From an uncultured candidate division Zixibacteria bacterium (GTDB lineage Bacteria; Zixibacteria; MSB-5A5; GN15; FEB-12), in the NCBI GenBank assembly GCA_913009765.1, contig CAJVYT010000073.1:1-13429 (forward strand): DNA of 13,429 bases. Direction: 5' to 3'. Shown here in pieces: positions 1-13,429 of the stretch; position 1 is the stretch's first letter, and each line of letters starts with the position of its first letter. The position numbers and the translations under genes were made by a program. The notes beneath the pieces were generated by a model. It searched no databases. It worked only from the letters and a program-made list of their open reading frames with translations, and had not been told where the DNA came from.

Positions 1-39
1 ATGAGTAGTAAGAAGATTGTAATTAGTAATTTTTTTTTT
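1..39. other. Non-genomic read-through tail outside the adapter
   Basis: This stretch lies outside the adapter at 40-105 and ends in a run of nine T. Its complement is A-rich, as expected when a sequencer reads past the end of an adapter-ligated fragment. It has no coding signal and should be trimmed with the adapter. Confidence 0.85.
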
Positions 40-105
40 CAAGCAGAAGACGGCATACGAGATATATCAGTGTGACTGGAGTTCAGACGTGTGCTCTTCC
101 GATCT
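40..105 (-). other. Illumina TruSeq P7 indexed adapter (contaminant)
   Basis: Read 5'->3' on the plus strand, this is the P7 flow-cell sequence (40-63), then ATATCAGT (the reverse complement of index ACTGAT plus its AT extension), then the TruSeq read-2 primer site ending in CTTCCGATCT at 105. It is an exact reverse complement of 13307-13372. From memory the index corresponds to TruSeq LT index 25. This is synthetic DNA, so the organism's sequence begins at 106. Confidence 0.98.
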
Positions 106-355
106 GATACAAATCTAAATCGGTAAAAACAGTAAATTTGTGATTCCATTGTTTTGACTGCTTAAAATTCTTAGAAACATCAACTTTCAAATTATTTAAC
201 ATTGAACCGGCTTCAAGGGAATCTGCATAAGAGTGATATAGATTTGACTCATAAAATCCGCCGTATGTTAGTTCGATATCCATTAAATCATCAGAGGCAT
301 TTATAGATACTGATATTATAAAACTTAAACATATTGACAAAATAATTTTATTCAT
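106..355 (-). CDS. Exported protein, 3'-truncated by adapter; possibly an outer-membrane beta-barrel
   Basis: Only the first 83 residues are genuine. The open frame runs on into the adapter to position 83 and would add an artificial tail, Q plus IGRAHV, where IGRAHV is the familiar translation of AGATCGGAAGAGCACACGT. The start at 355 is supported by an AAGGAG ribosome site at 362-367, 7 nt upstream. Residues 1-20 form a signal peptide (MNK, hydrophobic core, then A-S-D). The mature part has alternating polar/hydrophobic and aromatic stretches (about 25-40 and 55-83), compatible with the first strands of an outer-membrane barrel. That is inference only; no family is recognisable. The gene starts 14 nt after the TPR gene stop and so is probably in the same operon. 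Everything beyond residue 83 is missing. Confidence 0.75.
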
Positions 356-369
356 TATAAACTCCTTGT

Positions 370-2097
370 TTACTTAAATAATTCATCATACTCATCCTTG
401 AATTTTTTAGAATCGGGGTTATAATTAGCGGCAAGAGCATATTCGTTCATCGCCTCATCAATACGATTCATTTTAACTAAAACCTGTCCTAATTTCCAAT
501 GTGTCTTCCAGCTATCGGCATCATAATCAAGTGCCTTGAGAAGCAAATCGACTGCTTTAGTATAATTTTCTGATTTTTCTTCTAAAATAGCCAAATTATG
601 ATAAGCTTTTGCATAATCAGCCTTTAATTCAATTGCTTTTGCATAATCCTGTTTGGCTTTATTTATATCTCCAAGTTCACTATAAACTTTAGCTCGATTA
701 TAAAATGCTTTGGGATCCTGCGATAGATTCACCAGCCTATTAAAACAAATTAAAGCAGAATCCAAGATATTAAGTTTTAAGTAAGCTGTACCCAAGTTGT
801 GCAGTCCTTTTGTATTGGTAGGGTCATTATCTATCAGCTTTGAATAAACATCGGCAGCATTTCTTATTTGACCTGATTTATTATAAGCTAATCCAAGATT
901 ATAAAGAGCTTTCATATTTTCAGGGTCTAAATCTATAACTTTGTTATAATACGTTATTGCTGAATCATATAGATTCTTATCATAAAGTATGATAGCAATA
1001 TTATAGTACGCTTTTGAATAGCTTCTGTTTGCTTTTGTTGCCTGTTGATAATAAAATAAAGCACTGTCTTTTTTGTTTTCCTTATAGTACAATGAAGCTA
1101 AGTTATAGCTTGCTTGATAATGTGAACTGTCTGCCTTAAGACATTGCAAATATGATTTGACCGCATCATCATTTTTACCCATCTTTTTATATAAAATTGC
1201 CAAATTATACCATGCGGCAGAATTATTTTTTTCAAGCTCAGCTCTTTTTTGATACGCTAAAACTGCTTTATCAAGCTTACCAAGTTTACTGTAACAGAGT
1301 CCAAGATTCCGATAAAGCTTTGCTTTTTTAAATCCGAGATTTTTACTTTTTTCAAGCTCCTGCACAGCAGTTTTACAATCCCCTTGATCAATTTTCAAAA
1401 GTGCGAGATTAAACCTTGCTTCAACATAGTTTGGTCTCAAGCGTAGTGCCTCTCGATAACTTGCTTCTGATTTTACAAGGTCATTTGTTTTTTTGTATAA
1501 TATCCCTAAGTTGTAATGTGCCGATGCTGAGGTGCGGTTACCTTTTATTTCTGAAGCTCTTGTGAACCATTCAATTGCATCATTATATTTATCAATTGAG
1601 CTATATAAAACACCTAAATTATATACCGGTTCGTAATAATAAGGACGTAACGTAAATGCTTTTTTATAAAACTTAATAGCGTTGCCAAGTTTGTTTAATC
1701 TGTGATTGGCAACACCCAAATTGTAATAAGCCCGGGCATAAGTTGAATCAAGTTTGAGAGCTTTGGTAAGAAGATTAATTGCTGTATTATAATTTTGTGA
1801 TTCAAAAAACAGTAAAGATGAATCGTTTAGCTTAACCGCTTCAGGAATTGAGCTGAAATATATTGAGCTGTCAGTTTTATCGTTTGTAAAAAGAATTTTA
1901 TCGGCTTCATCCGGTATAGATTTTTCCGAATTTTTCTGTTTGCTTTGCACTTCTGCCGACAAATCTTCAGACGACTTATTACTCACCTGAATTACCTCAA
2001 TTCGAGTATCTTTATAAGAACCGGATGTTATGACAGCAAAAACAATAACAGAAATAGCTGCTATCCATGCAGCAATATTTAAAATATAATATCTCAT
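370..2097 (-). CDS. Membrane-anchored protein with about 14 TPR repeats
   Basis: This 575-residue protein has one hydrophobic segment at residues 5-25 with no clear cleavage site, so it is probably a signal anchor that leaves the rest in the periplasm. A low-complexity polar linker follows (about 28-85). From about residue 87 to 570 there are roughly fourteen consecutive 34-residue tetratricopeptide repeats, with the usual Y-N-L-G/A, Y and A at helix A and helix B positions (for example AYYNLGVANHRL, ALYNLGLAYNKSG) and a final P-D/N at most repeat ends. TPR superhelices bind partner proteins or peptides; no catalytic domain is visible. Its start codon overlaps the ligase stop as ATGA (4 nt), so translation is probably coupled. 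The partner is unknown, but its place in the operon suggests a scaffold for the ligase/transglutaminase system. The function is not established. Confidence 0.9.
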   Translation of the reverse strand: MRYYILNIAAWIAAISVIVFAVITSGSYKDTRIEVIQVSNKSSEDLSAEVQSKQKNSEKSIPDEADKILFTNDKTDSSIYFSSIPEAVKLNDSSLLFFESQNYNTAINLLTKALKLDSTYARAYYNLGVANHRLNKLGNAIKFYKKAFTLRPYYYEPVYNLGVLYSSIDKYNDAIEWFTRASEIKGNRTSASAHYNLGILYKKTNDLVKSEASYREALRLRPNYVEARFNLALLKIDQGDCKTAVQELEKSKNLGFKKAKLYRNLGLCYSKLGKLDKAVLAYQKRAELEKNNSAAWYNLAILYKKMGKNDDAVKSYLQCLKADSSHYQASYNLASLYYKENKKDSALFYYQQATKANRSYSKAYYNIAIILYDKNLYDSAITYYNKVIDLDPENMKALYNLGLAYNKSGQIRNAADVYSKLIDNDPTNTKGLHNLGTAYLKLNILDSALICFNRLVNLSQDPKAFYNRAKVYSELGDINKAKQDYAKAIELKADYAKAYHNLAILEEKSENYTKAVDLLLKALDYDADSWKTHWKLGQVLVKMNRIDEAMNEYALAANYNPDSKKFKDEYDELFK

Positions 2098-2972
2098 TGA
2101 ATTTTAGTTCCCAAACCATCTTGATTAGCCAATTGAATATTTAAACCCGGACGGGCGTTTACTTCCAAAACCATTGCCCCGTGTGCGACATCACACACAA
2201 AGTCGACTCCTATATAGCCTAAGTTTACAATATCGCTTATCCTTGCACCAAACTCTAACATATCTTGAAAAAATGGAACTTCGTGTCCCTTGAGTTCTAT
2301 CTTGTTGTCAGGGTGATGCGTTATAAAATTATTCTTATGACATCCATTAGTAGTCATAGAAGTTTGTAAATCAATTCCGATTCCAATACCACCCTGATGT
2401 AAATTAGCTTTACCATCCGATTCTTCAGTAGGAGCTCTCAGCATTGCCATAACCGGAATATTGTCTTGATATATTATCCGAATATCTGTAATACCATCCT
2501 GCCCTTCTAATGTAAATTGAGAAAGTTCCGGATGATTAGTTATAGTCTCTTCAAAATATGCTGTATCAGAAGTATTGTCTATTGAAAAAGCACCATTATA
2601 AATCTGCTGAAGATGGAAAGTAATATCATCTTTGCTAATTTCTTCTCCCGAACTATAAAAGGTATCTTCTACCCTCTTTATAAGTTTTATACCATTTCCT
2701 CCAAATCCACGATTTGGTTTAATAACAAAATTATCTAAAGAAGAAAGCTCATTTTCCCACCCTTTAAGAACTTTTGGAGAATCAACCACATACAATGTCT
2801 TTGGTACCGGGATATTATGTTCCTGCAATATTTTTTTACAGAGTAGTTTGTTGTCAACATTGGGAAAATATGTTCGCTTATTATGAGTATAAATTAAATC
2901 AAGGTTTCGTTTATTTATACCAACAATCCCTTTTCGTGACGGAAGCATTTTGAATATGTCTAAAAAAGCCAT
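2094..2972 (-). CDS. RimK-related ATP-grasp ligase (alpha-L-glutamate ligase-like protein)
   Basis: This 292-residue soluble protein matches the family annotated as alpha-L-glutamate ligase-related, which resembles RimK but has its own N-terminus. The opening GINKRNLDLIY...YFPNVDNKLLCK (residues 18-46) is the family signature. The ATP-grasp nucleotide loop is FVIKPNRGFGGNGI at 82-95, with K85 the likely ATP-binding lysine. MAMLRAP at 175-181 and SDGKANLHQGG at 185-195 form the central core. D257 and E270/N272 (VLEVNARPG) are the likely Mg-binding residues. ATP-grasp ligases join a carboxylate to an amine through an acyl-phosphate; the substrates here are unknown. It has no signal peptide, so it acts in the cytoplasm. 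It starts 2 nt after the transglutaminase-7TM gene and overlaps the next gene by 4 nt. The family pairing with a 7TM transglutaminase-like protein is known, and a peptide-adding role is predicted, not shown. The C-terminus ends soon after the ARPG motif, slightly shorter than I recall for relatives. Confidence 0.9.
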   Translation of the reverse strand: MAFLDIFKMLPSRKGIVGINKRNLDLIYTHNKRTYFPNVDNKLLCKKILQEHNIPVPKTLYVVDSPKVLKGWENELSSLDNFVIKPNRGFGGNGIKLIKRVEDTFYSSGEEISKDDITFHLQQIYNGAFSIDNTSDTAYFEETITNHPELSQFTLEGQDGITDIRIIYQDNIPVMAMLRAPTEESDGKANLHQGGIGIGIDLQTSMTTNGCHKNNFITHHPDNKIELKGHEVPFFQDMLEFGARISDIVNLGYIGVDFVCDVAHGAMVLEVNARPGLNIQLANQDGLGTKIQ

Positions 2973-2974
2973 TA

Positions 2975-4576
2975 TCAGGACCTTACTAACAGATGTTTAA
3001 AACGAGTAAATTCAATCAGCCTAAATCCACTGTATCGACCTATATAAATATAGATTGCAATCACAACTAAAATTGTTTCAGGAAAAGTAATTACGATTGA
3101 TTGTAAAAATCTGGATGACATAATTGCATAAGACGATGATGCAACAATCAGAGTCAAAAAAGCAATACGTAAAGCATTCCAAATACCGGATTCCTCCGTT
3201 ATAATAGAAAGACGTTCAACAGTCAATGTCAGAATAATCATCGGAAATAGAGCAACACGGGCAAAGTTGAGAAACCCTAAAGATACTCCCACTGCGGTCA
3301 ATCCGAGATTAAACAAAACAACAGTAGAAAGTAAAATAGCCAAACGGGGAGTATGCAATAGATGCAGCCTCTCCAAAATTACTCTCATCACAGACCCAAA
3401 ACCCATTATGAGTGCAAATAACAGTATACCGCTCGATAGACCGGTATCTCTAAACCCGATAGCTATAAGTGCCGGCATAAAAGTTCCAAAGGTTTCAAGC
3501 CCGACAATATTTCTAAAGAAAACAACTGCTAAAACACCGATTGGCAGCATAATAATAATTTTTAACAGTTCTAATGAAATAGCAACTTTTTTAAAGGTAG
3601 CCCAAATATTTAAAATATCAAGAGGGTTCTTTTTCAATTTGTTAAGACCGGCAACAGTTGAAGTTAGTCGTTTTTTGAGATTAAAATAATATTTAAAATT
3701 TATATCTTTCGTGTGTGTAATAAATGAAATTTCACCATAATACAGTATCAAATAATTAGAAGGAATCTCGGCAAAATATTCATTTGTCGGACAAAACGGC
3801 ACCCAGTAGTTACCGATATAAAACTCAACCCAAATATGTGTCGCTTTTGACTGACCGGAAGATAAAATCTTTCCACCGACTAATCTGGCAGGTATGCCCA
3901 AGTATCTGGCAAGTGCCGCCATAATACGGGACTTACCACCACAAGATGCTTCATTAAGACGATAAGCAGTTAAGGCATCAATAGTACCGGAATATCTTAC
4001 ATAATTCATGCCATAGGTAGCAAAATCATAAATAATTCTACTATTATATAAAATAGAACTGTCGCTTGATAAATGTAACGAATCAGCCAAATCCTTTATT
4101 TCCGGATTTTCCGATTGAATCATGCTGTCCGGTAATAAATAAAATGCCGCACTTTTTGGTACCTGATTCGTCGGCAATATTGTTGAGTCAATAATATACT
4201 TAATATTCTTAGTTAGAATCGTAGCCGTATAGTTTAGCTGACGTTTACCGTCAACAGAAGATGACTGCCATTTTCCGCGGCGATTTAATCTGTTTTTTTC
4301 AAAACTAAATTTTAAATCGTCAGAACCAAACGCCTCATCTTTAACAGTCTGATTGGGCAAGTTTTTGGGAAGTGCAATACTAACCTCTACCGGAGAACTA
4401 TGACCATCTAATTCCATAACCATCTCCAAGTGGTAACTCTCCGATTGAGTTACCGCTTCAAGATTATATCCAAGATATTTTATCTTGTACATGGCAACTG
4501 CCGACGCAACAAAAATTAGCAGTGCCGGCAGAACACCTATTAAAACCTTTGATGCTTTCAAGCGACTTACGGACAT
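2975..4576 (-). CDS. Transglutaminase-like domain fused to a C-terminal 7TM-type membrane domain
   Basis: This 533-residue inner-membrane protein has one N-terminal helix (about 12-30), then a periplasmic region (about 31-330) whose end is a transglutaminase-like core. The core holds SCGGKSRIMAALARYLGIPARLVGG (in part, 211-235) with Cys212, THIWVE with His247, and WVPFCPTN, where the usual Asp of the D-P-T motif is Cys262. The C-terminal part (about 335-510) is a bundle of about six or seven hydrophobic helices carrying ETFGTFMPALIAIGFRDT (361-378), typical of proteins annotated as inactive transglutaminase fused to seven transmembrane helices. The domain order and the neighbouring ATP-grasp ligase match that family. 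It may bind, cleave or transfer the product of the ligase; this is inference. The gene overlaps the preceding TPR gene by 10 nt. Unlike the family label, Cys and His are kept here, so residual activity is possible. Confidence 0.88.
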   Translation of the reverse strand: MSVSRLKASKVLIGVLPALLIFVASAVAMYKIKYLGYNLEAVTQSESYHLEMVMELDGHSSPVEVSIALPKNLPNQTVKDEAFGSDDLKFSFEKNRLNRRGKWQSSSVDGKRQLNYTATILTKNIKYIIDSTILPTNQVPKSAAFYLLPDSMIQSENPEIKDLADSLHLSSDSSILYNSRIIYDFATYGMNYVRYSGTIDALTAYRLNEASCGGKSRIMAALARYLGIPARLVGGKILSSGQSKATHIWVEFYIGNYWVPFCPTNEYFAEIPSNYLILYYGEISFITHTKDINFKYYFNLKKRLTSTVAGLNKLKKNPLDILNIWATFKKVAISLELLKIIIMLPIGVLAVVFFRNIVGLETFGTFMPALIAIGFRDTGLSSGILLFALIMGFGSVMRVILERLHLLHTPRLAILLSTVVLFNLGLTAVGVSLGFLNFARVALFPMIILTLTVERLSIITEESGIWNALRIAFLTLIVASSSYAIMSSRFLQSIVITFPETILVVIAIYIYIGRYSGFRLIEFTRFKHLLVRS

Positions 4577-6090
4577 GTAGCCAATCCTATAGTATCTCTT
4601 CTAACTACTGCATTAGGGTATTTTGAACAATTTGGATACTGAGTAATCACCGTACAATATTCATCATGAGCCGAAACGTCATCCAAAAGTTTCTCATAAC
4701 ATTTTCCCGCCCAGTAATGAGCATCACCGGCATCTTTATTGTTGGGATATGTGTTATAGAAAGTTGTGTATTGAGCCAATGCAAGAGAATAGTCACCGTT
4801 GGCATAATATGTCGATGCAATTTTATATACTGCTTGAGGAACCCAATCGTTATTTGGCTCATTTGCTAAATAGTCCTGATACAGTGAAATAGCAGCGGTA
4901 TAGTTATCTAAATTGTATTCACAGGAACCCAAATAATATCTTGCATGTGCCTCACGGCTTGAATTTGGAAAGTTTGTAACAATATATTGATAATCTGCTT
5001 TAGCATCCAAATATGTGTATGCTTCTAATTTATATTTACATTGAGAACGGTAGTACCATGAGTCAGTAAGTTTATCACCAGACGGATAACTTGTAATACT
5101 GTTATTAAACTCGGCAAGAGCTTGAGCAAAATTTTCCTGATTATAATAACTCATACCTTTGTAATAGCTCGCCTTGGCAGCTTCTGTTGAAGCAGCATAA
5201 TTATTTAAGAGATTATTAAATTCAACAATAGCTGAACCATAATTATCATCTGTATAATACAGCCATCCCGCATTATAAATAGCAGGCGTGATATCGGGTG
5301 ATGCTGGATAATTTGTCTCTACTAATTGATAAGCAGTAATAGCTGAAGCAGTATTTCCAAGAGCCTCATAAGTACGTCCAATTCGATATTGTGCTCTACT
5401 GGCTATCGTACTTGCAGGGAAATTTGCTGTTACAAATTGATAATCACTTAAAGCACCATTCAAATCATTTTGGTTTTCTTTATAAATACCTCGACTGTAA
5501 TAAGCAATAGGAACAATAGAATCAGCAGGAAAATCTGTGATACATAATGTAAAGTTTGCAATCGCAGAATCTAACATATCTATATTCGCGTAAGATAACC
5601 CTAAACGATATCTGGCAAGTGGTGCATAAGCACCGGATGGTGCTGAACTAAGTAACGATTTTAATTGTGCAATCGCTGAGTTAAAATCATCATAAGTATA
5701 AGAAGTCATAGCATCACCAAAAAGTTGTGCCTCAGTACTATTGTTTGCTGTTAAAACTATTGAAGGAACAACGTTTACTTGACCAGCTGATGCGATAAAT
5801 TGATTTGTAATCGCCTCACTTACATATCCGCATTTTGTGGCTATTAAACTGTATACTCCAATTGGAACTCCTATGATTGTATAATCACCGGACGCATCGG
5901 TCACACCTACGATATTAGTTCCCGAAACGGAAATAAATATACCGGAATGATCAGTTCCGCCGGTTTGAATATTACCGGTAAATGTTCCATAAGGAACTAA
6001 ATCAACATTCACATAAGTCGTATCAGCCTTACCAACCGAAATAACAGAAAACAAAACAACTAAAGTAAAAATATATTTTTTATAATTCAT
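4567..6090 (-). CDS. Secreted TPR protein (YbgF/outer-membrane-assembly style) with N-terminal regulatory-like beta domain
   Basis: This 507-residue protein has a clear signal peptide (residues 1-22, MNYKKY plus hydrophobic core, ending GKA). Residues about 34-114 form a carboxypeptidase-regulatory-like beta-sandwich domain (GVTDASGDYTIIGVPIGVYSL). From about 118 to 500 there are about ten TPR-like repeats of 36-39 residues. The repeats have the pattern A-x-Y-x-x-G-x-x-Y and end in Y/F-P, as in YbgF/CpoB and BamD-type periplasmic proteins (for example TDFPADS, TNYPASP, TNFPNSS). The start at 6090 has GGAGA about 10 nt upstream. The gene lies 38 nt after the dockerin-like gene and overlaps the transglutaminase-7TM start by 10 nt, so it is co-translated with it. 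It is likely a periplasmic or surface scaffold. No enzymatic domain is seen and the target is unknown. Confidence 0.88.
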   Translation of the reverse strand: MNYKKYIFTLVVLFSVISVGKADTTYVNVDLVPYGTFTGNIQTGGTDHSGIFISVSGTNIVGVTDASGDYTIIGVPIGVYSLIATKCGYVSEAITNQFIASAGQVNVVPSIVLTANNSTEAQLFGDAMTSYTYDDFNSAIAQLKSLLSSAPSGAYAPLARYRLGLSYANIDMLDSAIANFTLCITDFPADSIVPIAYYSRGIYKENQNDLNGALSDYQFVTANFPASTIASRAQYRIGRTYEALGNTASAITAYQLVETNYPASPDITPAIYNAGWLYYTDDNYGSAIVEFNNLLNNYAASTEAAKASYYKGMSYYNQENFAQALAEFNNSITSYPSGDKLTDSWYYRSQCKYKLEAYTYLDAKADYQYIVTNFPNSSREAHARYYLGSCEYNLDNYTAAISLYQDYLANEPNNDWVPQAVYKIASTYYANGDYSLALAQYTTFYNTYPNNKDAGDAHYWAGKCYEKLLDDVSAHDEYCTVITQYPNCSKYPNAVVRRDTIGLATCP

Positions 6091-6128
6091 TTTTTACAAT
6101 CTCCATTTTTTTAATGTACATAATAATT

Positions 6129-6620
6129 TTATAAACACGGTGCCGGTGCTGATCCACTTTGGAAACTATAAGCAACAAGATATACCAAATCAGAAACATT
6201 GATAGAACCGGAGCCGTTAATATCACCTTCATCTTCACATGCCGGTGCAGGTCCGCTTTGGAAACTATAAGCAACAAGATATACCAAATCAGAAACATTG
6301 ATAGAACCGGAAGCATTAACATCACCTCGCAAAGTACAGCATGAACCAATAGTTTTCGTAAAAATTAACGGGGTATAATTGACAGAACCGGCTAATAACG
6401 TATATGACCCGTTAACAACATTCGGAATAAAATAATTCCCGTTAACATCTGTCATCGTGCTATCACCGGTTTCTATAATTTTAATAATAACATTTGGAAT
6501 TGGGAGTCCGGTGTCACTATCTGTCACGGTACCAACAATATCGGCAGCGAAAATACTGCCCGGAACAAGACCAATGAAAAACAATAAAATTAAAAACAGA
6601 AACATCTTTTTTTGTTTCAT
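6129..6620 (-). CDS. Small secreted protein: regulatory-like beta domain plus two dockerin-like repeats
   Basis: This 163-residue protein starts at 6620, where AGGAG lies 6 nt upstream; an in-frame ATG at 6659 would add 13 residues ahead of the signal peptide and is less likely. Residues 1-25 are a signal peptide (MKQKK, hydrophobic core, ending IFAA). Residues about 27-90 are a carboxypeptidase-regulatory-like domain (GTVTDSDTGLPIPNV, DVNGNYFIP). The C-terminus has two dockerin-type calcium-binding loops, GDVNASGSINVSDL and GDINGSGSINVSDL, each followed by VYLVAYSFQSG and a Pro-Ala-rich end. In many FCB-group candidate phyla such C-terminal repeats occur on secreted proteins without cellulosomes, perhaps for surface attachment. 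Dockerin repeats normally bind cohesin domains or calcium; no cohesin is in the window. It is the first gene of operon B, with a beta domain like that of the next gene. Confidence 0.85.
   Translation of the reverse strand: MKQKKMFLFLILLFFIGLVPGSIFAADIVGTVTDSDTGLPIPNVIIKIIETGDSTMTDVNGNYFIPNVVNGSYTLLAGSVNYTPLIFTKTIGSCCTLRGDVNASGSINVSDLVYLVAYSFQSGPAPACEDEGDINGSGSINVSDLVYLVAYSFQSGSAPAPCL
6157..6212 (-). repeat. 56-bp direct repeat, copy 1 (dockerin-like repeat 2)
   Basis: This is identical over 56 nt to 6256-6311, offset 99 nt (33 codons), so the copies are in frame. It encodes the GSINVSDLVYLVAYSFQS core of the second dockerin-like repeat. Absence of even synonymous differences points to recent duplication or gene conversion. 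Confidence 0.95.
6256..6311 (-). repeat. 56-bp direct repeat, copy 2 (dockerin-like repeat 1)
   Basis: Exact copy of 6157-6212 encoding the core of the first dockerin-like repeat. The flanking bases diverge (for example GCCGGTGCTGATCCA against GCCGGTGCAGGTCCG in plus orientation), so only the core is perfectly conserved. Confidence 0.95.
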
Positions 6621-7124: not shown

Positions 7125-7164
7125 AAAAAATGGCTCCGTATAAAATATATACTTGGAGCCATTT
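7125..7164 (-). terminator. Intrinsic terminator of the metal efflux operon
   Basis: On the minus strand AAATGGCTCC (7155-7164) pairs with GGAGCCATTT (7128-7137) across a 17-nt loop. The stem runs into a T tract (TTTTTTG, from 7130 downward). It begins 35 nt after the stop of the PII-like gene, the last gene of the operon, and separates it from operon B. Confidence 0.85.
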
Positions 7165-7199
7165 CAATTTTAAAGCTTTTGTTCATAAGACAGAAATTC

Positions 7200-7541
7200 T
7201 CACACCGCTATTTCTCCGCGTTCTCCGGTACTAATGCGAATAGCTTGTTCGACATTTAAGACATAAATCTTACCGTCTCCACATAAACCGGTATGAGCAG
7301 CTTTTTCGATAGTATTTATGAGACTGTCGACCATGGCATCGGTACAAAAAATTTCAATTTTTGATATCATTAAAAAATCACCGGGATCATCGTTATGATG
7401 CTGATGATCGTCCGATACACACTCTCTGCCAAAACCTTTGACCTCAGTAACACTCATCCCTGTTAGATTCTCCACTTTATGCAGTGCGAGTGTAACTTCT
7501 GACAAACGATGCGACTTAATATAAGCTTTGATTTTTTTCAT
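7200..7541 (-). CDS. PII-like protein with His/Asp-rich T-loop, linked to metal efflux
   Basis: This 113-residue protein has the PII fold signatures: KKIKAYIKSHRLSEVTLAL at 2-20, the B-loop TGLCGDGKIYV at 84-94 and RISTGERGEIAV at 102-113. PII proteins are trimeric sensors that bind nucleotides and act on other proteins through a flexible T-loop. Here the T-loop region (about 37-57) reads CVSDDHQHHNDDPGD. It has no tyrosine for uridylylation, but three His and several Asp that could bind metal. It therefore belongs to the PII-like group found next to heavy-metal RND genes (called PII-NG in the literature), not to GlnB/GlnK. Its ATG shares one base with the pump gene's TAA (TAATG), so the two are translationally coupled, which suggests it senses metal or nucleotide state to control the pump. 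A CutA-like identity is less likely because of the TGERG and GDGKI motifs. Confidence 0.9.
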   Translation of the reverse strand: MKKIKAYIKSHRLSEVTLALHKVENLTGMSVTEVKGFGRECVSDDHQHHNDDPGDFLMISKIEIFCTDAMVDSLINTIEKAAHTGLCGDGKIYVLNVEQAIRISTGERGEIAV

Positions 7542-10500
7542 TATTCTTTTTCCTCATTTATTGATATTACAGCTTTTGCTGGAGCATCTGTAAACCATTT
7601 ATAAATTGCAGGCAGTACCAATAATGTTAAAATTGTCGATGTGATTAATCCACCTACTACTACTGTTGCTAATGGACGTTGCACTTCACTGCCTATTCCA
7701 CTGGAAAAGAGAAGCGGAATCATACCGAGTGCTGCTGCAAGAGCTGTTATAAGCACAGGTCGCAGCCTTAAACAAGCCCCTCTCATTGATGCCTCTTCTA
7801 CTGAGTATCCTTCCCTCACTAACTGATTAAAATATGTTACGAGAACAATTCCATTCAAAAGTGCGATACCGAATAAAGCTATAAAACCAACCGAGGCAGG
7901 AACTGACAAATTCTGTCCGGTTAACCAAAGCCCAACAATACCACCTACTAATGCAAGAGGAAGATTCAGTAATATTAAAAGAGAATTCTTAAGTGAATTA
8001 AAACTTGAGAACAATAGGAAAAAGACAAACAGTAGAGTAATTGGAATTACTATTGCCAACCTTTTGTTTGCTTCCTGCTGAAGTCGGAACTGTCCACCCC
8101 AAGTAGTGTAATAACCTGTCGGCAATTCAACATTCTGTGCTATCGCTTTTTTGGCATCTTTAACAAATGATGTTATATCACGACCGTTAACATTACACTG
8201 AATTGTAATAAACCGTTGATTATTTTCACGAGTAATCTGTCTTGGTCCTACAATCTCTTCTATAGTTGCCAGTTCATGCAGCGGAATCCAAATATCATCA
8301 TGCGATTGAACCAAAATTTGTCCAATTTCTTCAGGAGTACTGCGAAACGATTCATTATATCGAACAAGAATATCAAAACGTTTGACTCCTTCAAATATCT
8401 GTCCTGCAATTTCACCACCTACAGCAGCTTGAATTACTTCTTGCACATCGGCAACATTGATTCCATAACGAGCAATTGCCTGTCGGTTTATTTTCATAAG
8501 CAGTTGCGGAGTTCCCGAAATTTGATCAGGTTGCACATCAGCAGCACCGGAAACTTGACCAAGAACCTGTGCTATTTCATCGGCTTTAATTTTTAGCGAA
8601 TCCAAGTTATCACCGAATATTTTTATAGCCAGTTCTGCTCGCACTCCCTCCAAAAGTTCATCAACTGTCATTTGAATAGGTTGTGTAAAATTGGTCAAAA
8701 CACCCGGAATATTACCTATTTGATTGCGAATGTATGTTTGCAGTTCTTCCTGCGAATTGGCAGATTTCCATTCATCTCTTGGTTTGAGCAGAATATACAT
8801 CTCAGCACTATTGACAGGATCTGTATGAGCTCCAACTTCTCCTCGTCCAATCCGAGTAACAACTCCTGTTATATCATCAATCTTCATTAACCGCCGCTCG
8901 ACAATCTGAGTTATACGTGTACTCTCTGTTAATGCAATAGATGGCGACATCGTCATTCGAAGCACTAGAGTACCTTCCTGAAGAGTAGGTGTAAATTCAG
9001 AACCTAATTTAGGGTAAATAAAAGCCCCTACCACTATTAACGAAAAAGCAATAATAAGGGCAACAAAACGTCGAGCTATTAAGAATTTCAATATCGGTCT
9101 ATATGGAATGAGCAGCCATCTGATAAGTCCTTTTTCACCTGTTTCAGAATTATTATCATTTGATGTATGTTGCAGATTTTTTGGACGCCGCATAAAAAGC
9201 GAAGAAAGAGCCGGAACAATAAACAGGGCAAACAACAAAGATCCCAACATAGCTAAAGCTACTGTATATGCTAACGGCTTGAAAGTTTTCCCCTCCACTC
9301 CCGAAAGAGTAAACAGGGGAAGAAATACAACAATAATAATGAATATTGCAAAAACAATCGGTCTTCCCACTTCTTTACAGGCACGAGCAACAATGTGAAT
9401 GCGGGATTCGGATGGGTCAGAGCTATGCAGTAGTCTTTCAGTATTTTCAACCATGACTACAGCACCATCAACAAGCATACCGATCGCAATTGCTAAACCA
9501 CCAAAAGACATTAAATTGGCAGAGATACCAAACTGCTTCATCCCTATAAAAGCAAAAAGAACTGAAAATGGAATTGAAATTGCTGCTACGAGGCTTGGTC
9601 GAAAACTTCCTAAAAAGATCACGAGAATTATAATAACAAGAATCATACCCTCAAGAAGAGCATTTGTTACGGTTTTAACACAAGCGGCAACAAGAGTTTT
9701 CTGCTCGTAATATGGAACGAGTTTGATTCCTTCAGGAAGAAGTTTGTTAATCTCCACCATTTTGGATTCCACTGCCTCAATAACGGTTGAAGAGTTTGCA
9801 CCAAACAGTTTTACAACCATTCCTGAAACAACTTCACTAATACCGTTATAGGTTTGAACACCTCGACGTATGGCTCCACCTATTTCAATATCAGCTATCT
9901 GACTCAAAAAGATAGGAGTACCATTTTCAGATTTAATTACAATATTTTCAAGATCTTCTATCGTATAAGCAAGTCCGACTGAACGCACTATAAGTTCTTC
10001 AGCATCACGTTCAATAAACTGTGCCCCGACGTTTAGATTATTTGCACGTATCTTCTCTATAATATCTGACAAAGATATATTATAGCGAAGAAGTCCTTCA
10101 GGGTTGATATTAATTTGAAACTGTTTCTCATACCCGCCAATCCCCAAAACTTCTGTTACACCGGGAACAGTCTGCAGGTTGAACTTAACCAGCCAATCCT
10201 GAATACTTCTTAATTCTTCTAAACTATAAGTACCTGTCTCATCTTCAAGATAATAGAATAGTATCAAACCCATTCCGGTTGATATTGGACCCATTGACGG
10301 TTCGCCAAATCCCTCAGGGATTTGTTCGCGAGCCTCTTGTAAACGTTCATCAACAAGTCTACGGGCAAAATAGATATCCACTTCATCCTTGAAATATACA
10401 TTTACAACTGAAAGTCCAAAATTTGAAATTGAGCGTATTTTAGATATCCCCGGTAATCCATTCATTGCAGCTTCCACCGGATAAGTAATATACTGTTCAA

Positions 10501-10681
10501 TTTCCTCAGGAGCTAACCCTTCGGTAATTGTAAATACCTGTACAAGATTAGGGGAAACATCAGGAAACGCATCTACCGGTAATTGATTATAGCTGAATAA
10601 TCCCCCAGCCATAATCATAAGACCAAACACCAAAAAGAGTAGACGATTCCTTAAAGAGAGCTTTATAATTTTATCTATCAT
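7541..10681 (-). CDS. Heavy-metal efflux RND pump (CzcA/CusA family), inner-membrane subunit
   Basis: This 1046-residue, full-length HME-RND transporter is proton-driven and exports metal ions from the periplasm or cytoplasm through the adaptor and outer-membrane channel. TM1 is at about 12-32, followed by the family signature LPVDAFPDVSPNLVQV (34-49). The TM4 motif is AIG-MLV-DGA-VVM-VEN (399-413), with D405 and E412 as likely proton-relay residues. The second half repeats the layout: TM7 about 536-556, porter loop QPIQMTVDELLEGVRAEL (667-684) and the last helices 877-1030. QPIQM...GVRAE followed by KIFGDN resembles CzcA (divalent Zn/Co/Cd), while the A-I-G at TM4 replaces the D-F-G of Czc pumps and recalls CusA. 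M576, M578, M628 and M671 lie near the CusA methionine positions. The substrate metal is therefore not settled. It starts 18 nt after the adaptor gene with GGAAAG as ribosome site. Confidence 0.95.
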   Translation of the reverse strand: MIDKIIKLSLRNRLLFLVFGLMIMAGGLFSYNQLPVDAFPDVSPNLVQVFTITEGLAPEEIEQYITYPVEAAMNGLPGISKIRSISNFGLSVVNVYFKDEVDIYFARRLVDERLQEAREQIPEGFGEPSMGPISTGMGLILFYYLEDETGTYSLEELRSIQDWLVKFNLQTVPGVTEVLGIGGYEKQFQININPEGLLRYNISLSDIIEKIRANNLNVGAQFIERDAEELIVRSVGLAYTIEDLENIVIKSENGTPIFLSQIADIEIGGAIRRGVQTYNGISEVVSGMVVKLFGANSSTVIEAVESKMVEINKLLPEGIKLVPYYEQKTLVAACVKTVTNALLEGMILVIIILVIFLGSFRPSLVAAISIPFSVLFAFIGMKQFGISANLMSFGGLAIAIGMLVDGAVVMVENTERLLHSSDPSESRIHIVARACKEVGRPIVFAIFIIIVVFLPLFTLSGVEGKTFKPLAYTVALAMLGSLLFALFIVPALSSLFMRRPKNLQHTSNDNNSETGEKGLIRWLLIPYRPILKFLIARRFVALIIAFSLIVVGAFIYPKLGSEFTPTLQEGTLVLRMTMSPSIALTESTRITQIVERRLMKIDDITGVVTRIGRGEVGAHTDPVNSAEMYILLKPRDEWKSANSQEELQTYIRNQIGNIPGVLTNFTQPIQMTVDELLEGVRAELAIKIFGDNLDSLKIKADEIAQVLGQVSGAADVQPDQISGTPQLLMKINRQAIARYGINVADVQEVIQAAVGGEIAGQIFEGVKRFDILVRYNESFRSTPEEIGQILVQSHDDIWIPLHELATIEEIVGPRQITRENNQRFITIQCNVNGRDITSFVKDAKKAIAQNVELPTGYYTTWGGQFRLQQEANKRLAIVIPITLLFVFFLLFSSFNSLKNSLLILLNLPLALVGGIVGLWLTGQNLSVPASVGFIALFGIALLNGIVLVTYFNQLVREGYSVEEASMRGACLRLRPVLITALAAALGMIPLLFSSGIGSEVQRPLATVVVGGLITSTILTLLVLPAIYKWFTDAPAKAVISINEEKE

Positions 10682-10699
10682 TTTATTTTCTTTCCGCTC

Positions 10700-11659
10700 T
10701 TAATGGCTGTCGCTTAACGAACTTTTTTTAAGTTCAGCCTTAATAGTGAATGCACCTTTGCTGGCATATTTCTGTCCGACAACCAAACCGGAAAGTATTT
10801 CAGCCGAATTTTTATTTACACGCCCTATTTTTACTTTCACCGGTTTAAAGCCTTTAGGAGTGCTAACGAATATCACATCATTACCCTCAAATTTCTGTAA
10901 TGAAGATTTTGGGACAAGAAGTGATACCAATTCCTCGTCTATTACTATTCTACCTTCCACAAATAATCCAGGTCTCCAATCTCTGTTCAAATTAGGAATT
11001 ACAACTCGAGCAGTAGCAGTTCTTGTATGTTCATCAACAATAGGTGATAGGTAAGAGATTACTCCAGTCGCTTCTTTATATTCCTTTCCGGATGAAATAA
11101 TCATCTTCTGTCCCACTTTTACGTAGGGTAAGTGCATTTGATAAATAGAAAAGTTAACCCAAACAGTATCTAAGTCAGTAATAACAAAAGCAGAAACATC
11201 TTCGGTACTTACTTCTCCAATGGTTATATGCTTTTCAATAACAACCCCATCCGAAAGTGATTTTATTTCATAAGGCACCAATCCCTCATTACTCTCTATA
11301 ACTGCCAAAACATCACCGGTTTTTACTTTTTCACCTAAATGTTTATTAACCTTTTTTACCACACCAGGAAATCTCGGAGCGATATGGGCAAGTTTGTCAT
11401 AGTTGACAGCTACTTCACCGGGGACAACAATTTCTTTACGAAAAATCCCAGATGAAGCGGTAGAAAGTTCAATTTCAAACTCATCCAACTCTGATGGAGT
11501 AAGTTGTACAACCTCTCCATGATCCTCATCTCCATCATTATGTTTTGTATCTGCAGTTTGTTCTGATTGATTAACATTATCATGTTCTCCTTCGGCAAAT
11601 AAAGCAACCGGAGTCATAGTTAGAAGAAAGATGCAGATATAAATAAGTAATAATTTCAT
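10700..11659 (-). CDS. Periplasmic adaptor (CzcB/CusB-like) of the RND efflux system, short form
   Basis: This 319-residue membrane-fusion protein has a signal peptide at 1-22 and a His/Asp/Glu-rich N-terminal segment (23-48: GEHD, TKHNDGDEDHGE) that may capture metal. The barrel-sandwich half HIAPRFPGVVKKVNKHLGEK (92-111, GDVLAVIES to 123) is followed after about 10 residues by the second half, YEIKSLSDGVVIEKHITIGE (130-149). No space remains for the alpha-helical hairpin that usually reaches TolC. The beta-barrel domain (VWVNFSIYQMHLPYVKVGQ, 166-184; RTATARVVIPN, 213-223; RPGLFVEGRI, 229-238) and the membrane-proximal domain (250-310) follow. It couples the pump to the outer-membrane channel. 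The gene starts 20 nt after the channel gene, with AAAGGAAA as ribosome site. It is shorter than typical CusB/CzcB (about 380-520 residues), but the reading frame is intact. Confidence 0.92.
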   Translation of the reverse strand: MKLLLIYICIFLLTMTPVALFAEGEHDNVNQSEQTADTKHNDGDEDHGEVVQLTPSELDEFEIELSTASSGIFRKEIVVPGEVAVNYDKLAHIAPRFPGVVKKVNKHLGEKVKTGDVLAVIESNEGLVPYEIKSLSDGVVIEKHITIGEVSTEDVSAFVITDLDTVWVNFSIYQMHLPYVKVGQKMIISSGKEYKEATGVISYLSPIVDEHTRTATARVVIPNLNRDWRPGLFVEGRIVIDEELVSLLVPKSSLQKFEGNDVIFVSTPKGFKPVKVKIGRVNKNSAEILSGLVVGQKYASKGAFTIKAELKKSSLSDSH

Positions 11660-11679
11660 TTCTTTTTCCTTTAATAGTA

Positions 11680-12981
11680 TTATTGGTATATTCTTATGCC
11701 GCTAATTTGTTCAATTGCTAACAACTGTTCATAAATAGCAAAAAGCATATCGTTGTGTTCAAATCGTAAATCAATCAATGAACGTTCAGCTTCCAGAAAA
11801 CTCGTATAGGGAATTCGACCAAGAGAATATGTTTTCTGAATTGTGTTGTAAGCATTTTCAGCTGTCGGCAAAAGTAATGTATCTAATGTCATGTGCTGAT
11901 TTATCAATTCTGTTAATTGTGAAATCGAAGAATTAATGTAAGCTTTCGTTTCTATACGAGTTTTTTCCTGTTCATATTCTTTTGACCGAATTGATGCTTG
12001 GAGAGATGCCCTATCACCTTGATTTTTATTGAAGAGAGGTAAAGGAACTGATATGCCAAAAAGAAACGAGTTAGAGTTGTTAACTTTAATCCGTTTAAAC
12101 CCGCCGCTAAAAGTTACATTAGGCTTTGCTTCTTTGGAGACAAGTTGTTTCTCTGCCCGCACTTTTTTAATATCATAGCTCAGTTGCTGAACATACCTTG
12201 TTGAATCCAGCTGACTGGTTATTTTTTGTAATCTATCTAAAGCACTTTGTAAGTTTGGCTCATTGGCAGAACTAACTGTTATATCTGTTTTTTTACTGTT
12301 CCATAAAGCCGCCAGTTCAATTTGAGAACTACGCAGCTCTTGTTGTACTTTCTGATAATCAAGTTCTAAACGCTGCAGTTCAAGTTGGGCAAGAAGAAAC
12401 TCAGAATGCAACGCTGCCCCCCGGTTCATTCTGAATTCAATGCTCTTTACAATATTTTCAGCAAGTAATACCGATGAATCAGCCAATAATATCTTATTTT
12501 GAGTATAAAAAAGTTTAAAAAATCTTCTTTTCACTTCTAAGTAAAGATCAAATGCCTCGACCATGGTTTCAAATTTGGTTAATTCAATTCCAGCTAATGC
12601 CACATTCTTTCGAGCATTTCTCTGACCGAATATCTCAAACTCTTGTGATAAAGAAATCGATATTTCTGATTCACTAAAACCGGGGGCATCCCAACCTACT
12701 TCTTCAAATTCGGTTGAAAGTTCAGGATTCTGCCAAAGCCCGGCTTGTTTTAATTGATTAACAGCTGCTTCTCTTTTATACACATACGACTTTAACGATG
12801 GGTTATGTACAGAAACTAAATCAACTATTATATCAATCGTCATTACAGACAACGAAGCATCAGATGTAATAACTTTAGAAGTATCAAAGCTATTATTCCA
12901 ACGTTCTCCAGCTTTGATATTTGAAAAAGTCGTCATAAGCAATAATAAAAAGGGCAGTAAAAGGTGTAGGTGTCTTTTCAT
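11680..12981 (-). CDS. TolC-type outer-membrane efflux channel (CzcC/CusC-like)
   Basis: This 433-residue protein has a signal peptide (1-24, MKRHLHLL plus hydrophobic core, ending IKA). It shows the duplicated outer-membrane efflux protein layout. In repeat 1, NPSL at 60-63 is followed by QNPELSTEFEE and SISLSQEFEIFGQR (108-121), then long coiled coils (about 123-220). Repeat 2 begins at about 258, with FLFGISVPLPLFNKNQGD (306-323) and YSLGRIPYTSFLEAERSLID (385-404). The SQEFEIFGQR and PLPLFNKN motifs are typical of the CzcC branch. It forms the trimeric exit duct for metal. It is not a lipoprotein, since no lipobox Cys is present. The start at 12981 has GGAGAA (12988-12993) 6 nt upstream. 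It is the first gene of the operon and lies 20 nt before the adaptor gene. Confidence 0.93.
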   Translation of the reverse strand: MKRHLHLLLPFLLLLMTTFSNIKAGERWNNSFDTSKVITSDASLSVMTIDIIVDLVSVHNPSLKSYVYKREAAVNQLKQAGLWQNPELSTEFEEVGWDAPGFSESEISISLSQEFEIFGQRNARKNVALAGIELTKFETMVEAFDLYLEVKRRFFKLFYTQNKILLADSSVLLAENIVKSIEFRMNRGAALHSEFLLAQLELQRLELDYQKVQQELRSSQIELAALWNSKKTDITVSSANEPNLQSALDRLQKITSQLDSTRYVQQLSYDIKKVRAEKQLVSKEAKPNVTFSGGFKRIKVNNSNSFLFGISVPLPLFNKNQGDRASLQASIRSKEYEQEKTRIETKAYINSSISQLTELINQHMTLDTLLLPTAENAYNTIQKTYSLGRIPYTSFLEAERSLIDLRFEHNDMLFAIYEQLLAIEQISGIRIYQ

Positions 12982-13306: not shown

Positions 13307-13372
13307 AGATCGGAAGAGCACACGTCTGAACTCCAGTCACACTGATATATCTCGTATGCCGTCTTCTGCTTG
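13307..13372 (+). other. Illumina TruSeq indexed adapter (contaminant)
   Basis: It starts with AGATCGGAAGAGC and reads through the read-2 primer complement, index ACTGAT with AT, and the P7 complement ending in CTTCTGCTTG. It is the exact reverse complement of 40-105. It is synthetic, so the genomic insert ends at about 13306. Confidence 0.98.
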
Positions 13373-13429
13373 AAAAAAAAAACAAAAACATAAAAGAAAA
13401 AAAAAAAAAATAGAAATAATAAAAAAGAA
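13373..13429. other. A-rich read-through tail after the adapter
   Basis: These 57 nt are almost all A with scattered other bases, directly after the P7 end. This is typical of base calls beyond the end of a short fragment. It is not genomic. Confidence 0.85.

What the first reader, a model, noticed from the sequence alone, without database searches (positions are those of the whole stretch)
2094..6620. Candidate new variant of the ATP-grasp ligase / transglutaminase-7TM system, built with secreted TPR and dockerin-like partners
Seen: a RimK-related ATP-grasp ligase and a transglutaminase-like 7TM protein are adjacent (2 nt apart). They sit in one tight gene run with a secreted YbgF-style TPR protein (10-nt overlap), a dockerin-repeat protein, a 14-TPR membrane-anchored protein (4-nt overlap) and a truncated exported protein. 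Known: the ligase and 7TM-transglutaminase pair recurs in bacteria, often with a RimB-like aspartyl/zinc protease, and was predicted by comparative genomics to make peptide tags or amide-linked products. Inferred: here the ligase makes a peptide or amino-acid conjugate in the cytoplasm, the 7TM protein handles it at the membrane, and TPR scaffolds present it to envelope or surface proteins.
Basis: partly seen in the sequence, partly recalled or inferred. Interest (0 to 1): 0.72.

Follow-up and report, generated by a model that had tools for sequence, protein, structure and literature searches.

The report
Envelope-spanning amide ligase–transglutaminase gene module
A run of genes in an uncultured bacterium encodes a ligase inside the cell, a membrane protein carrying an enzyme domain with its catalytic residues in place, a scaffold protein and an outer-membrane channel; the same set recurs in many distant bacteria and looks like an undescribed machine for making and moving an amide-linked product through the cell envelope.

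Summary
The tight gene run is real and its core is conserved far beyond this contig, which comes from a Zixibacteria relative. (1) The "truncated exported protein" is cut by Illumina adapter; a full-length orthologue is a predicted 16-strand outer-membrane barrel (pLDDT 90). (2) The transglutaminase keeps Cys212 and His247, unlike the "inactive" RloB of the known rloABC operon. (3) The 14-TPR gene is core: present in 66 of 66 loci with enough flank and in 0 of 22 RloB-type loci; RloA protease is beside 21 of 22 RloB-type loci and 0 of 85 of this type. In Myxococcota picked by the 7TM domain alone, intact Cys-His went with the TPR gene in 12 of 12; 4 of 4 without it had neither TPR gene nor RloA. 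The secreted TPR and dockerin-like genes are lineage extras. Best reading: a trans-envelope module (ATP-grasp ligase, inner-membrane 7TM with probably active transglutaminase, anchored TPR, outer-membrane barrel) that makes, processes and delivers an amide-linked, perhaps glutamate-rich, product. Product and activity are unknown. New variant of a known kind.

The parts
2975..4576 (-). TG-7TM protein: N-terminal helix, transglutaminase domain (predicted periplasmic) with Cys212, His247, Cys262, Asn265, then 7TM domain (about residues 336-529)
2094..2972 (-). RimK/RloC-type ATP-grasp amide ligase, expected cytosolic
   Evidence: K42, K85, E141, D163, R165, R179, D257, E270, N272 invariant in 60 of 60 T-type and 20 of 20 RloC rows (catalytic roles recalled)
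370..2097 (-). 14-TPR protein with N-terminal hydrophobic anchor (TPR14); core partner
   Evidence: in 66 of 66 T-type loci with at least 3 kb downstream, 0 of 22 RloB-type; N-terminal hydrophobic segment in 50 of 53
106..355 (-). 5' part of an outer-membrane beta-barrel gene (orfT/C3); the rest is lost at the contig end, where adapter follows
4567..6090 (-). Secreted protein: CarboxypepD_reg-like domain followed by YbgF/BamD-like TPRs (lineage accessory)
   Evidence: (TIGR02795 180.4 bits, cut-off 90.1); TPR gene upstream in 20 of 68 T-type loci
6129..6620 (-). Small secreted protein: CarboxypepD_reg domain plus two dockerin-type repeats (lineage accessory)
   Evidence: PF13620, PF00404; ATG at 6620 read; upstream in 10 of 61 T-type loci

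Best explanation
It is a trans-envelope module with a four-gene core. (1) The cytosolic ATP-grasp ligase joins amino acids or amines by amide bonds; a glutamate-rich oligomer is the likeliest product because the ligase is RimK/RloC-like and the protease of the sister rlo system cuts poly-glutamate (inferred). (2) The 7TM domain holds or passes the product across the inner membrane (inferred). (3) The periplasmic transglutaminase domain, with Cys-His in place, cuts or transfers amide bonds of that product in cis (residues shown, fold predicted, activity inferred). (4) The membrane-anchored TPR protein couples this to a 16-strand outer-membrane barrel, which carries the product to or through the outer membrane (gene linkage shown, barrel predicted, transport inferred). 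In RloB-type relatives the transglutaminase has lost Cys and His and the TPR gene is absent. In Zixibacteria two secreted CarboxypepD_reg proteins (one TPR, one dockerin-like) are added, perhaps as acceptors or surface anchors.
For: Conserved gene set: ATP-grasp 77 of 80, TPR14 66 of 66, barrel 46 of 62 (53 of 62 at a weak cut-off) eligible loci of 85; record titles include Zixiibacteriota, Gammaproteobacteria, Mariprofundaceae, Nitrospirota, Bacteroidales, Calditrichota, Krumholzibacteriia, Planctomycetota, Myxococcales, Spirochaetes and Fibrobacteres. C212/H247/N265 in 77 of 77 T-type rows and 120 of 120 listed homologues; none of 20 RloB-type rows has Cys212 or His247. 7TM-only sample of Myxococcota: 12 of 12 intact sites with TPR14, 4 of 4 degenerate without. 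HMM-found Pseudomonadota: all 6 T-type genomes have TPR14 (loci L020, L032, L043/L188, L044, L046, L187). Ligase residues invariant. Barrel model. TG fold. Sister system: RloA cleaves runs of 8 or 10 Glu but not 6 or fewer; deleting rloB or rloC rescues the osmotic defect of the triple rloA mutant (PMC12239564).
Against: No product, substrate or activity is known. The third triad residue is Cys262 here and in 86 of 120 listed homologues (Asp in 33, Gly in 1); one papain-like family (Tae1) uses Cys there (PMC10318531), but that is analogy. The barrel gene was not detected in 9 to 16 of 62 eligible loci. The 7TM domain has no demonstrated transporter relative; the PgsC link was not significant. 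On the 7TM tree the T/R label needs only 2 changes, so the exclusion reflects few evolutionary switches, not about 100 independent cases. RloA does not always accompany a dead site: 4 of 4 degenerate Myxococcota loci and 1 of 22 RloB-type loci (L171) lack it nearby.
Confidence: 0.45

Rival explanations
1. A protein-tagging system: the transglutaminase links the ligase's product, or free amines, onto envelope proteins, and the TPR proteins present the acceptors; the barrel is a substrate or anchor, not an exporter.
For: Transglutaminase-type fold with Cys-His; two extra secreted proteins in Zixibacteria that could be acceptors; RimK adds Glu to a protein C-terminus (PMC12239564); a gene family with a spermidine-synthase-like domain sits after the barrel gene in L053, L070 and L071 (domain scanned in L070 only).
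Against: The extra secreted proteins are absent from most loci (TPRs 20 of 68, DOC 10 of 61), so they cannot be general acceptors; the clustering of neighbours showed no other gene common to most loci.
Confidence: 0.25
2. An envelope-stress or cell-wall homeostasis complex like rlo: the transglutaminase acts as a periplasmic protease/amidase on a ligase product whose level controls cell shape and osmotic tolerance; the TPR and barrel are structural.
Against: The P. aeruginosa data concern the RloB type, without the TPR/barrel genes; the type of the Shewanella gene was not tested. The extra outer-membrane barrel suggests transport.
Confidence: 0.22
3. The transglutaminase domain is catalytically dead despite Cys-His and only binds the product.
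For: Pfam describes the family as usually fused to an inactive transglutaminase; the third residue is Cys in this window.
Against: C212, H247 and N265 are invariant in 120 of 120 listed homologues while RloB-type rows drift there; same contrast in a 7TM-picked Myxococcota sample.
Confidence: 0.1

Closest known systems
rloABC operon (RloA retropepsin, RloB 7TM with inactive transglutaminase, RloC ATP-grasp), P. aeruginosa, PMC12239564 (abstract, passages, and sections 8 and 12 whole were read)
   Same: Same 7TM_transglut protein family next to the same ATP-grasp ligase family
   Different: Here the transglutaminase keeps Cys-His, RloA is absent, and an anchored TPR protein and an outer-membrane barrel are added; the window protein scores 205 bits with NCBIfam's RloB model against 792 for an R-type protein (L171); both are under its cut-off of 900
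ATP-grasp/7TM-transglutaminase neighbourhoods predicted by Iyer et al. 2009 (PMC3268129; not held; known from recall and citations only)
   Same: Predicted peptide ligase plus inactive transglutaminase-7TM pairs (recalled)
   Different: Could not be read, so whether a TPR/barrel variant was noted there is unknown
RimK-RimB
   Same: RimK-like ATP-grasp ligase (PF08443)
   Different: Cytosolic ribosome modification (PMC12239564 passages); PF05618 proteases absent from the 8 Zixibacteria genomes tested
Synthase-dependent polymer export with TPR plus outer-membrane barrel (PgaA, BcsC, AlgK/AlgE; roles recalled)
   Same: TPR protein next to an outer-membrane barrel of about 16 strands
   Different: An ATP-grasp ligase and TG-7TM protein take the place of a glycosyltransferase synthase; TPR and barrel are separate genes
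PgsBCA poly-gamma-glutamate synthase (recalled)
   Same: Idea of ligase plus small membrane protein exporting poly-glutamate
   Different: ATP-grasp ligase instead of PgsB (recalled as Mur-ligase-like); the 7TM domain is not detectably PgsC

Membership tests
rloABC (Rlo) operon | RloB: 7TM fused to transglutaminase lacking catalytic residues | tested here: not met
   7TM present, but C212 and H247 retained. NCBIfam RloB 205.2 bits vs cut-off 900; the R-type protein L171 also stays under it (792), so the cut-off alone is not the argument
rloABC (Rlo) operon | RloC ATP-grasp ligase next to RloB | tested here: met
   ATP-grasp 2 nt downstream, same residues as RloC rows
rloABC (Rlo) operon | Adjacent secreted RloA retropepsin | tested here: not met
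   0 of 85 T-type loci, window included; PF05618 absent from the 8 Zixibacteria genomes tested. Control: the 21 frames called RloA beside RloB all match PF05618
Pfam PF14402 7TM_transglut | Score above curated cut-off | tested here: met
   193.7 vs 25 bits
TIGR02291 alpha-L-glutamate ligase-like | Score above curated cut-off | tested here: not met
   266 vs 314.2 bits; above cut-off for PF14397 (213 vs 31.4)
Active transglutaminase/papain-like enzyme | Cys and His of the catalytic site on a transglutaminase fold | tested here: met
Active transglutaminase/papain-like enzyme | Third catalytic residue Asp | tested here: inconclusive
   Cys262 here; Cys 86, Asp 33, Gly 1 of 120 listed homologues; Asp 50, Cys 26, Gly 1 of 77 locus rows; N265 invariant in both
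Active transglutaminase/papain-like enzyme | Enzymatic activity | not testable with these tools
   needs biochemistry
Outer-membrane beta-barrel (last gene) | N-terminal signal-like region, beta-barrel fold, C-terminal aromatic | tested here: met
PgsC/CapC (poly-gamma-glutamate) | Homology of the 7TM domain to PF14102 | tested here: inconclusive
   No PF14102 match listed at E up to 10 (filters drop most weak matches); hhalign score 20.5, E 0.022; 6 of 150 shuffles as high
CpoB/YbgF (secreted TPR gene) | Full-length CpoB (PRK10803) match | tested here: not met
   69.6 vs cut-off 383 bits; YbgF-like TPR model above cut-off (TIGR02795 180.4 vs 90.1)
Synthase-dependent polysaccharide export | Glycosyltransferase synthase in the module | tested here: not met
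   no such family among the matches listed for the run's genes (the list for the 14-TPR protein is capped at 25)

The most novel reading that the evidence does not exclude
A previously undescribed, phylogenetically widespread Gram-negative machine that builds a peptide-like (poly-amino-acid) polymer with an ATP-grasp ligase, moves it through a 7TM inner-membrane channel, cuts or anchors it with a covalently attached, catalytically active transglutaminase, and exports it through a dedicated TPR-guided outer-membrane barrel; RloB-type systems are a reduced offshoot in which the transglutaminase died. Related 7TM loci swap in other amide-handling enzymes: RloA protease, an M14/AspA-type carboxypeptidase (L022, L050, L061), or gamma-glutamyltranspeptidase beside a stand-alone 7TM and a Ddl-like ligase (L136).
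Probability: 0.28. Interest if true: 0.86.

Novelty: new variant of a known kind. Interest (0 to 1): 0.62.

Why it matters
It shows that the 'inactive transglutaminase' membrane family has a large branch with its catalytic residues conserved, tied to an anchored TPR gene and usually an outer-membrane barrel. This gives an open question (what the rlo-type ligase/7TM pair makes and where it goes) a concrete, testable trans-envelope route, and it warns that the label 'inactive' may be wrong for many database entries.

Tried and rejected
PgsC/CapC homology of the 7TM domain: a shared G-x-x-x-P-x-L-I-A motif caught my eye. Profile-profile comparison was weak with narrow profiles (prob 0.4, E 0.16) and with wider ones (prob 2.2, E 0.022); 6 of 150 column-shuffled controls scored as high. 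Not claimed. PF14102 was absent from the 10 carrier genomes tested; three sub-cut-off hits in other genomes look like MFS transporters by eye (sequences, not scanned).

Single-transcript proof is not available. A strong terminator-like hairpin at about 7127-7165 on the - strand (-19.4 kcal/mol, z -5.8) between the P-II-like gene and the run suggests separate transcription from the metal-efflux genes; the consensus scan did not list it. The promoter scan (7 found, 4.7 expected) is not used.

RloA as an obligate replacement for an active transglutaminase: rejected as a general rule (4 of 4 degenerate Myxococcota loci have neither an RloA nor a TPR14 hit of 40 bits or more; L171 has no RloA).

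Bias noted: one of the two DNA patterns that fetched L001-L080 contains the catalytic Cys, so Cys in those rows is partly built in; His247 and Asn265 are not in the patterns. Samples without that filter: the protein search (120 of 120 listed of 252 hits), the HMM searches and the 7TM-only search. L001-L080 are the best 80 of 263. The 22 RloB-type loci are 22 of the 40 that one search lists at 163-252 bits. Two of these 22 (L167, L172) gave no called protein and are missing from the residue count of 20. L188 is the same contig as L043, so 85 loci are 84 distinct ones, window included. The HMMs were built partly from the loci they then scanned; the RloA references came from an ORF caller that picked some wrong frames, so I checked the 21 RloA calls beside RloB against Pfam: 21 of 21 match PF05618. 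The PF05618 genome counts (13 of 60) do not tell RloA from RimB. My ORF caller failed on several loci (8 of 81; L167, L172, L186); the six-frame HMM survey replaced it. The 77 of 80 for the ligase misses L058, L069 and L077, where a ligase hit exists on a long or shifted frame.
Full report
What is there. The window's - strand holds, in order of transcription, an efflux set (OEP, HlyD-type adaptor, RND-type protein, P-II-like; the RND gene is named from its neighbours and sequence, it was not scanned), a gap of about 580 bases with a strong terminator-like hairpin just after the P-II-like gene, and then the run named in the finding: dockerin-like, secreted TPR, TG-7TM, ATP-grasp, 14-TPR and a truncated ORF. 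The nearest relatives are Candidatus Zixiibacteriota MAGs (88% and 87% identity of the TG-7TM protein).

Artefact at the ends. Bases 1-105 and about 13307-13429 do not look like genome: read on the - strand they hold the Illumina index-adapter sequence with the same 8-base index at both ends, next to low-complexity sequence (adapter identity recalled). The 'truncated exported protein' ends in adapter-coded residues (QIGRAHV). Its orthologues in L001-L003 and L005-L008 lie downstream of the 14-TPR gene (in L004 found by HMM) and, where complete, are 367-405 aa as called.

Two architectures. A six-frame HMM survey of 85 T-type loci (84 distinct) and 22 RloB-type loci gave, for loci with enough flank: ATP-grasp 77 of 80 vs 22 of 22; TPR14 66 of 66 vs 0 of 22; barrel 46 of 62 vs 0 of 22; RloA 0 of 85 vs 21 of 22; secreted TPR upstream (weak cut-off) 20 of 68 vs 0 of 21; dockerin-like upstream 10 of 61 vs 0 of 21. 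The 21 RloA calls all match PF05618 in Pfam. In the Myxococcota sample the 12 with intact sites all have a TPR14 hit (two weak, 66 and 70 bits, at contig ends), and the 4 with degenerate sites have neither TPR14 nor RloA at 40 bits; one genome (G699) carries one of each. So the firm association is intact active site with TPR14; RloA with a degenerate site was seen in Pseudomonadota. There, 6 of 299 genomes have the T-type (759-785 bits) and 40 listed ones the RloB-type (163-252 bits), with a clear gap. On a tree of the 7TM domain the 20 full-length RloB rows form one group (support 91/79; bootstrap not settled), so these are few evolutionary events.

Ligase. The residues expected of an ATP-grasp active site are invariant in 60 T-type and 20 RloC rows (roles recalled). 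Substrate unknown.

Protease. PF05618 (RloA/RimB, not told apart) was found in 1 of 10 and 12 of 50 carrier genomes, none of them among the 8 Zixibacteria genomes tested.

Related enzymes. Three loci (L022 Calditrichota, L050 Chlorobiota, L061 Draconibacterium) carry an M14/AspA-type carboxypeptidase-family gene directly upstream of TG-7TM (domain scanned in L050). One Zixibacteria-phylum genome (G282, L136) has a gamma-glutamyltranspeptidase gene, then a stand-alone 7TM gene (called ORFs overlap), then a D-Ala-D-Ala-ligase-like ATP-grasp gene. These few cases suggest that the 7TM/ligase pair is combined with different amide-cutting or amide-transferring enzymes, which would fit an amide-linked product; recurrence could not be tested because the search machine did not answer.

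Mechanism. Shown: gene order, conservation, residues. Predicted: barrel, transglutaminase fold, membrane anchoring. Inferred: product, its passage, and the enzyme step. The sister system gives the main experimental hints: RloA cleaves runs of 8 or 10 Glu in vitro but not 6 or fewer, and deleting rloB or rloC rescues the triple rloA mutant's osmotic defect (PMC12239564; passages, sections 8 and 12), as expected if RloB/C make or export a product that RloA removes. That paper suggests free poly-alpha-glutamate as one possibility; the term TPR does not occur in it, and 'barrel' was not looked up. In Shewanella vesiculosa, disrupting an 'inactive transglutaminase' 7TM gene raised vesicle production (PMC12096838, passages seen).

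Literature. In searches no listed paper appeared, from title, start of abstract or the passages I opened, to describe the TPR/barrel variant. Iyer et al. 2009, the founding prediction, is not held, so I cannot say that it was not noticed there; hence 'new variant', not 'new kind'.

Verdict. The novelty lies in an active-site-bearing branch with a fixed TPR partner and usually an outer-membrane barrel.

Noticed in passing
window 1-105 and 13307-13429: Illumina index adapter (recalled) with the same index at both contig ends, plus low-complexity sequence: unremoved adapter in the assembly.
   Followed up: yes
window 7200-12981: Metal-efflux-like set (OEP, IhpB-like adaptor, RND-type protein) ending in a P-II-like protein gene that overlaps the RND gene by 1 nt. 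In L007 the same set (P-II 77%, RND 84%) lies next to the TG cluster but on the opposite strand, so it is a neighbour, not part of the run.
   Followed up: partly
window about 7127-7165 (- strand): Strong terminator-like hairpin after the P-II-like gene (z -5.8).
   Followed up: yes
L136 5395-8859: Gamma-glutamyltranspeptidase gene, stand-alone 7TM_transglut gene and Ddl-like ATP-grasp gene in a row in a Zixibacteria-phylum genome.
   Followed up: partly
L186 3165-7419: RloA/RimB-like frame (122 bits) and a weak ligase hit (54 bits) upstream of a stand-alone 7TM frame that overlaps an RloC-type frame; may bear on the origin of rlo from rim.
   Followed up: no
L053, L070, L071 downstream of the barrel gene: Gene family shared by three Bacteroidales/Bacteroidetes loci, with a spermidine-synthase-like domain where scanned (L070).
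   Followed up: partly
L001 15346-15804; L002 9732-10814; L005 41-1165; L134 11956-13044: DUF3541 (PF12060; scanned in L001, L005, L134) or same-cluster (L002) gene near the TG cluster in several Zixibacteria, downstream or upstream; function unknown.
   Followed up: partly
L211 and L212 (genome G699): One Myxococcota-phylum genome has both a degenerate TG-7TM with an RloC-type ligase and an intact TG-7TM with TPR14.
   Followed up: partly
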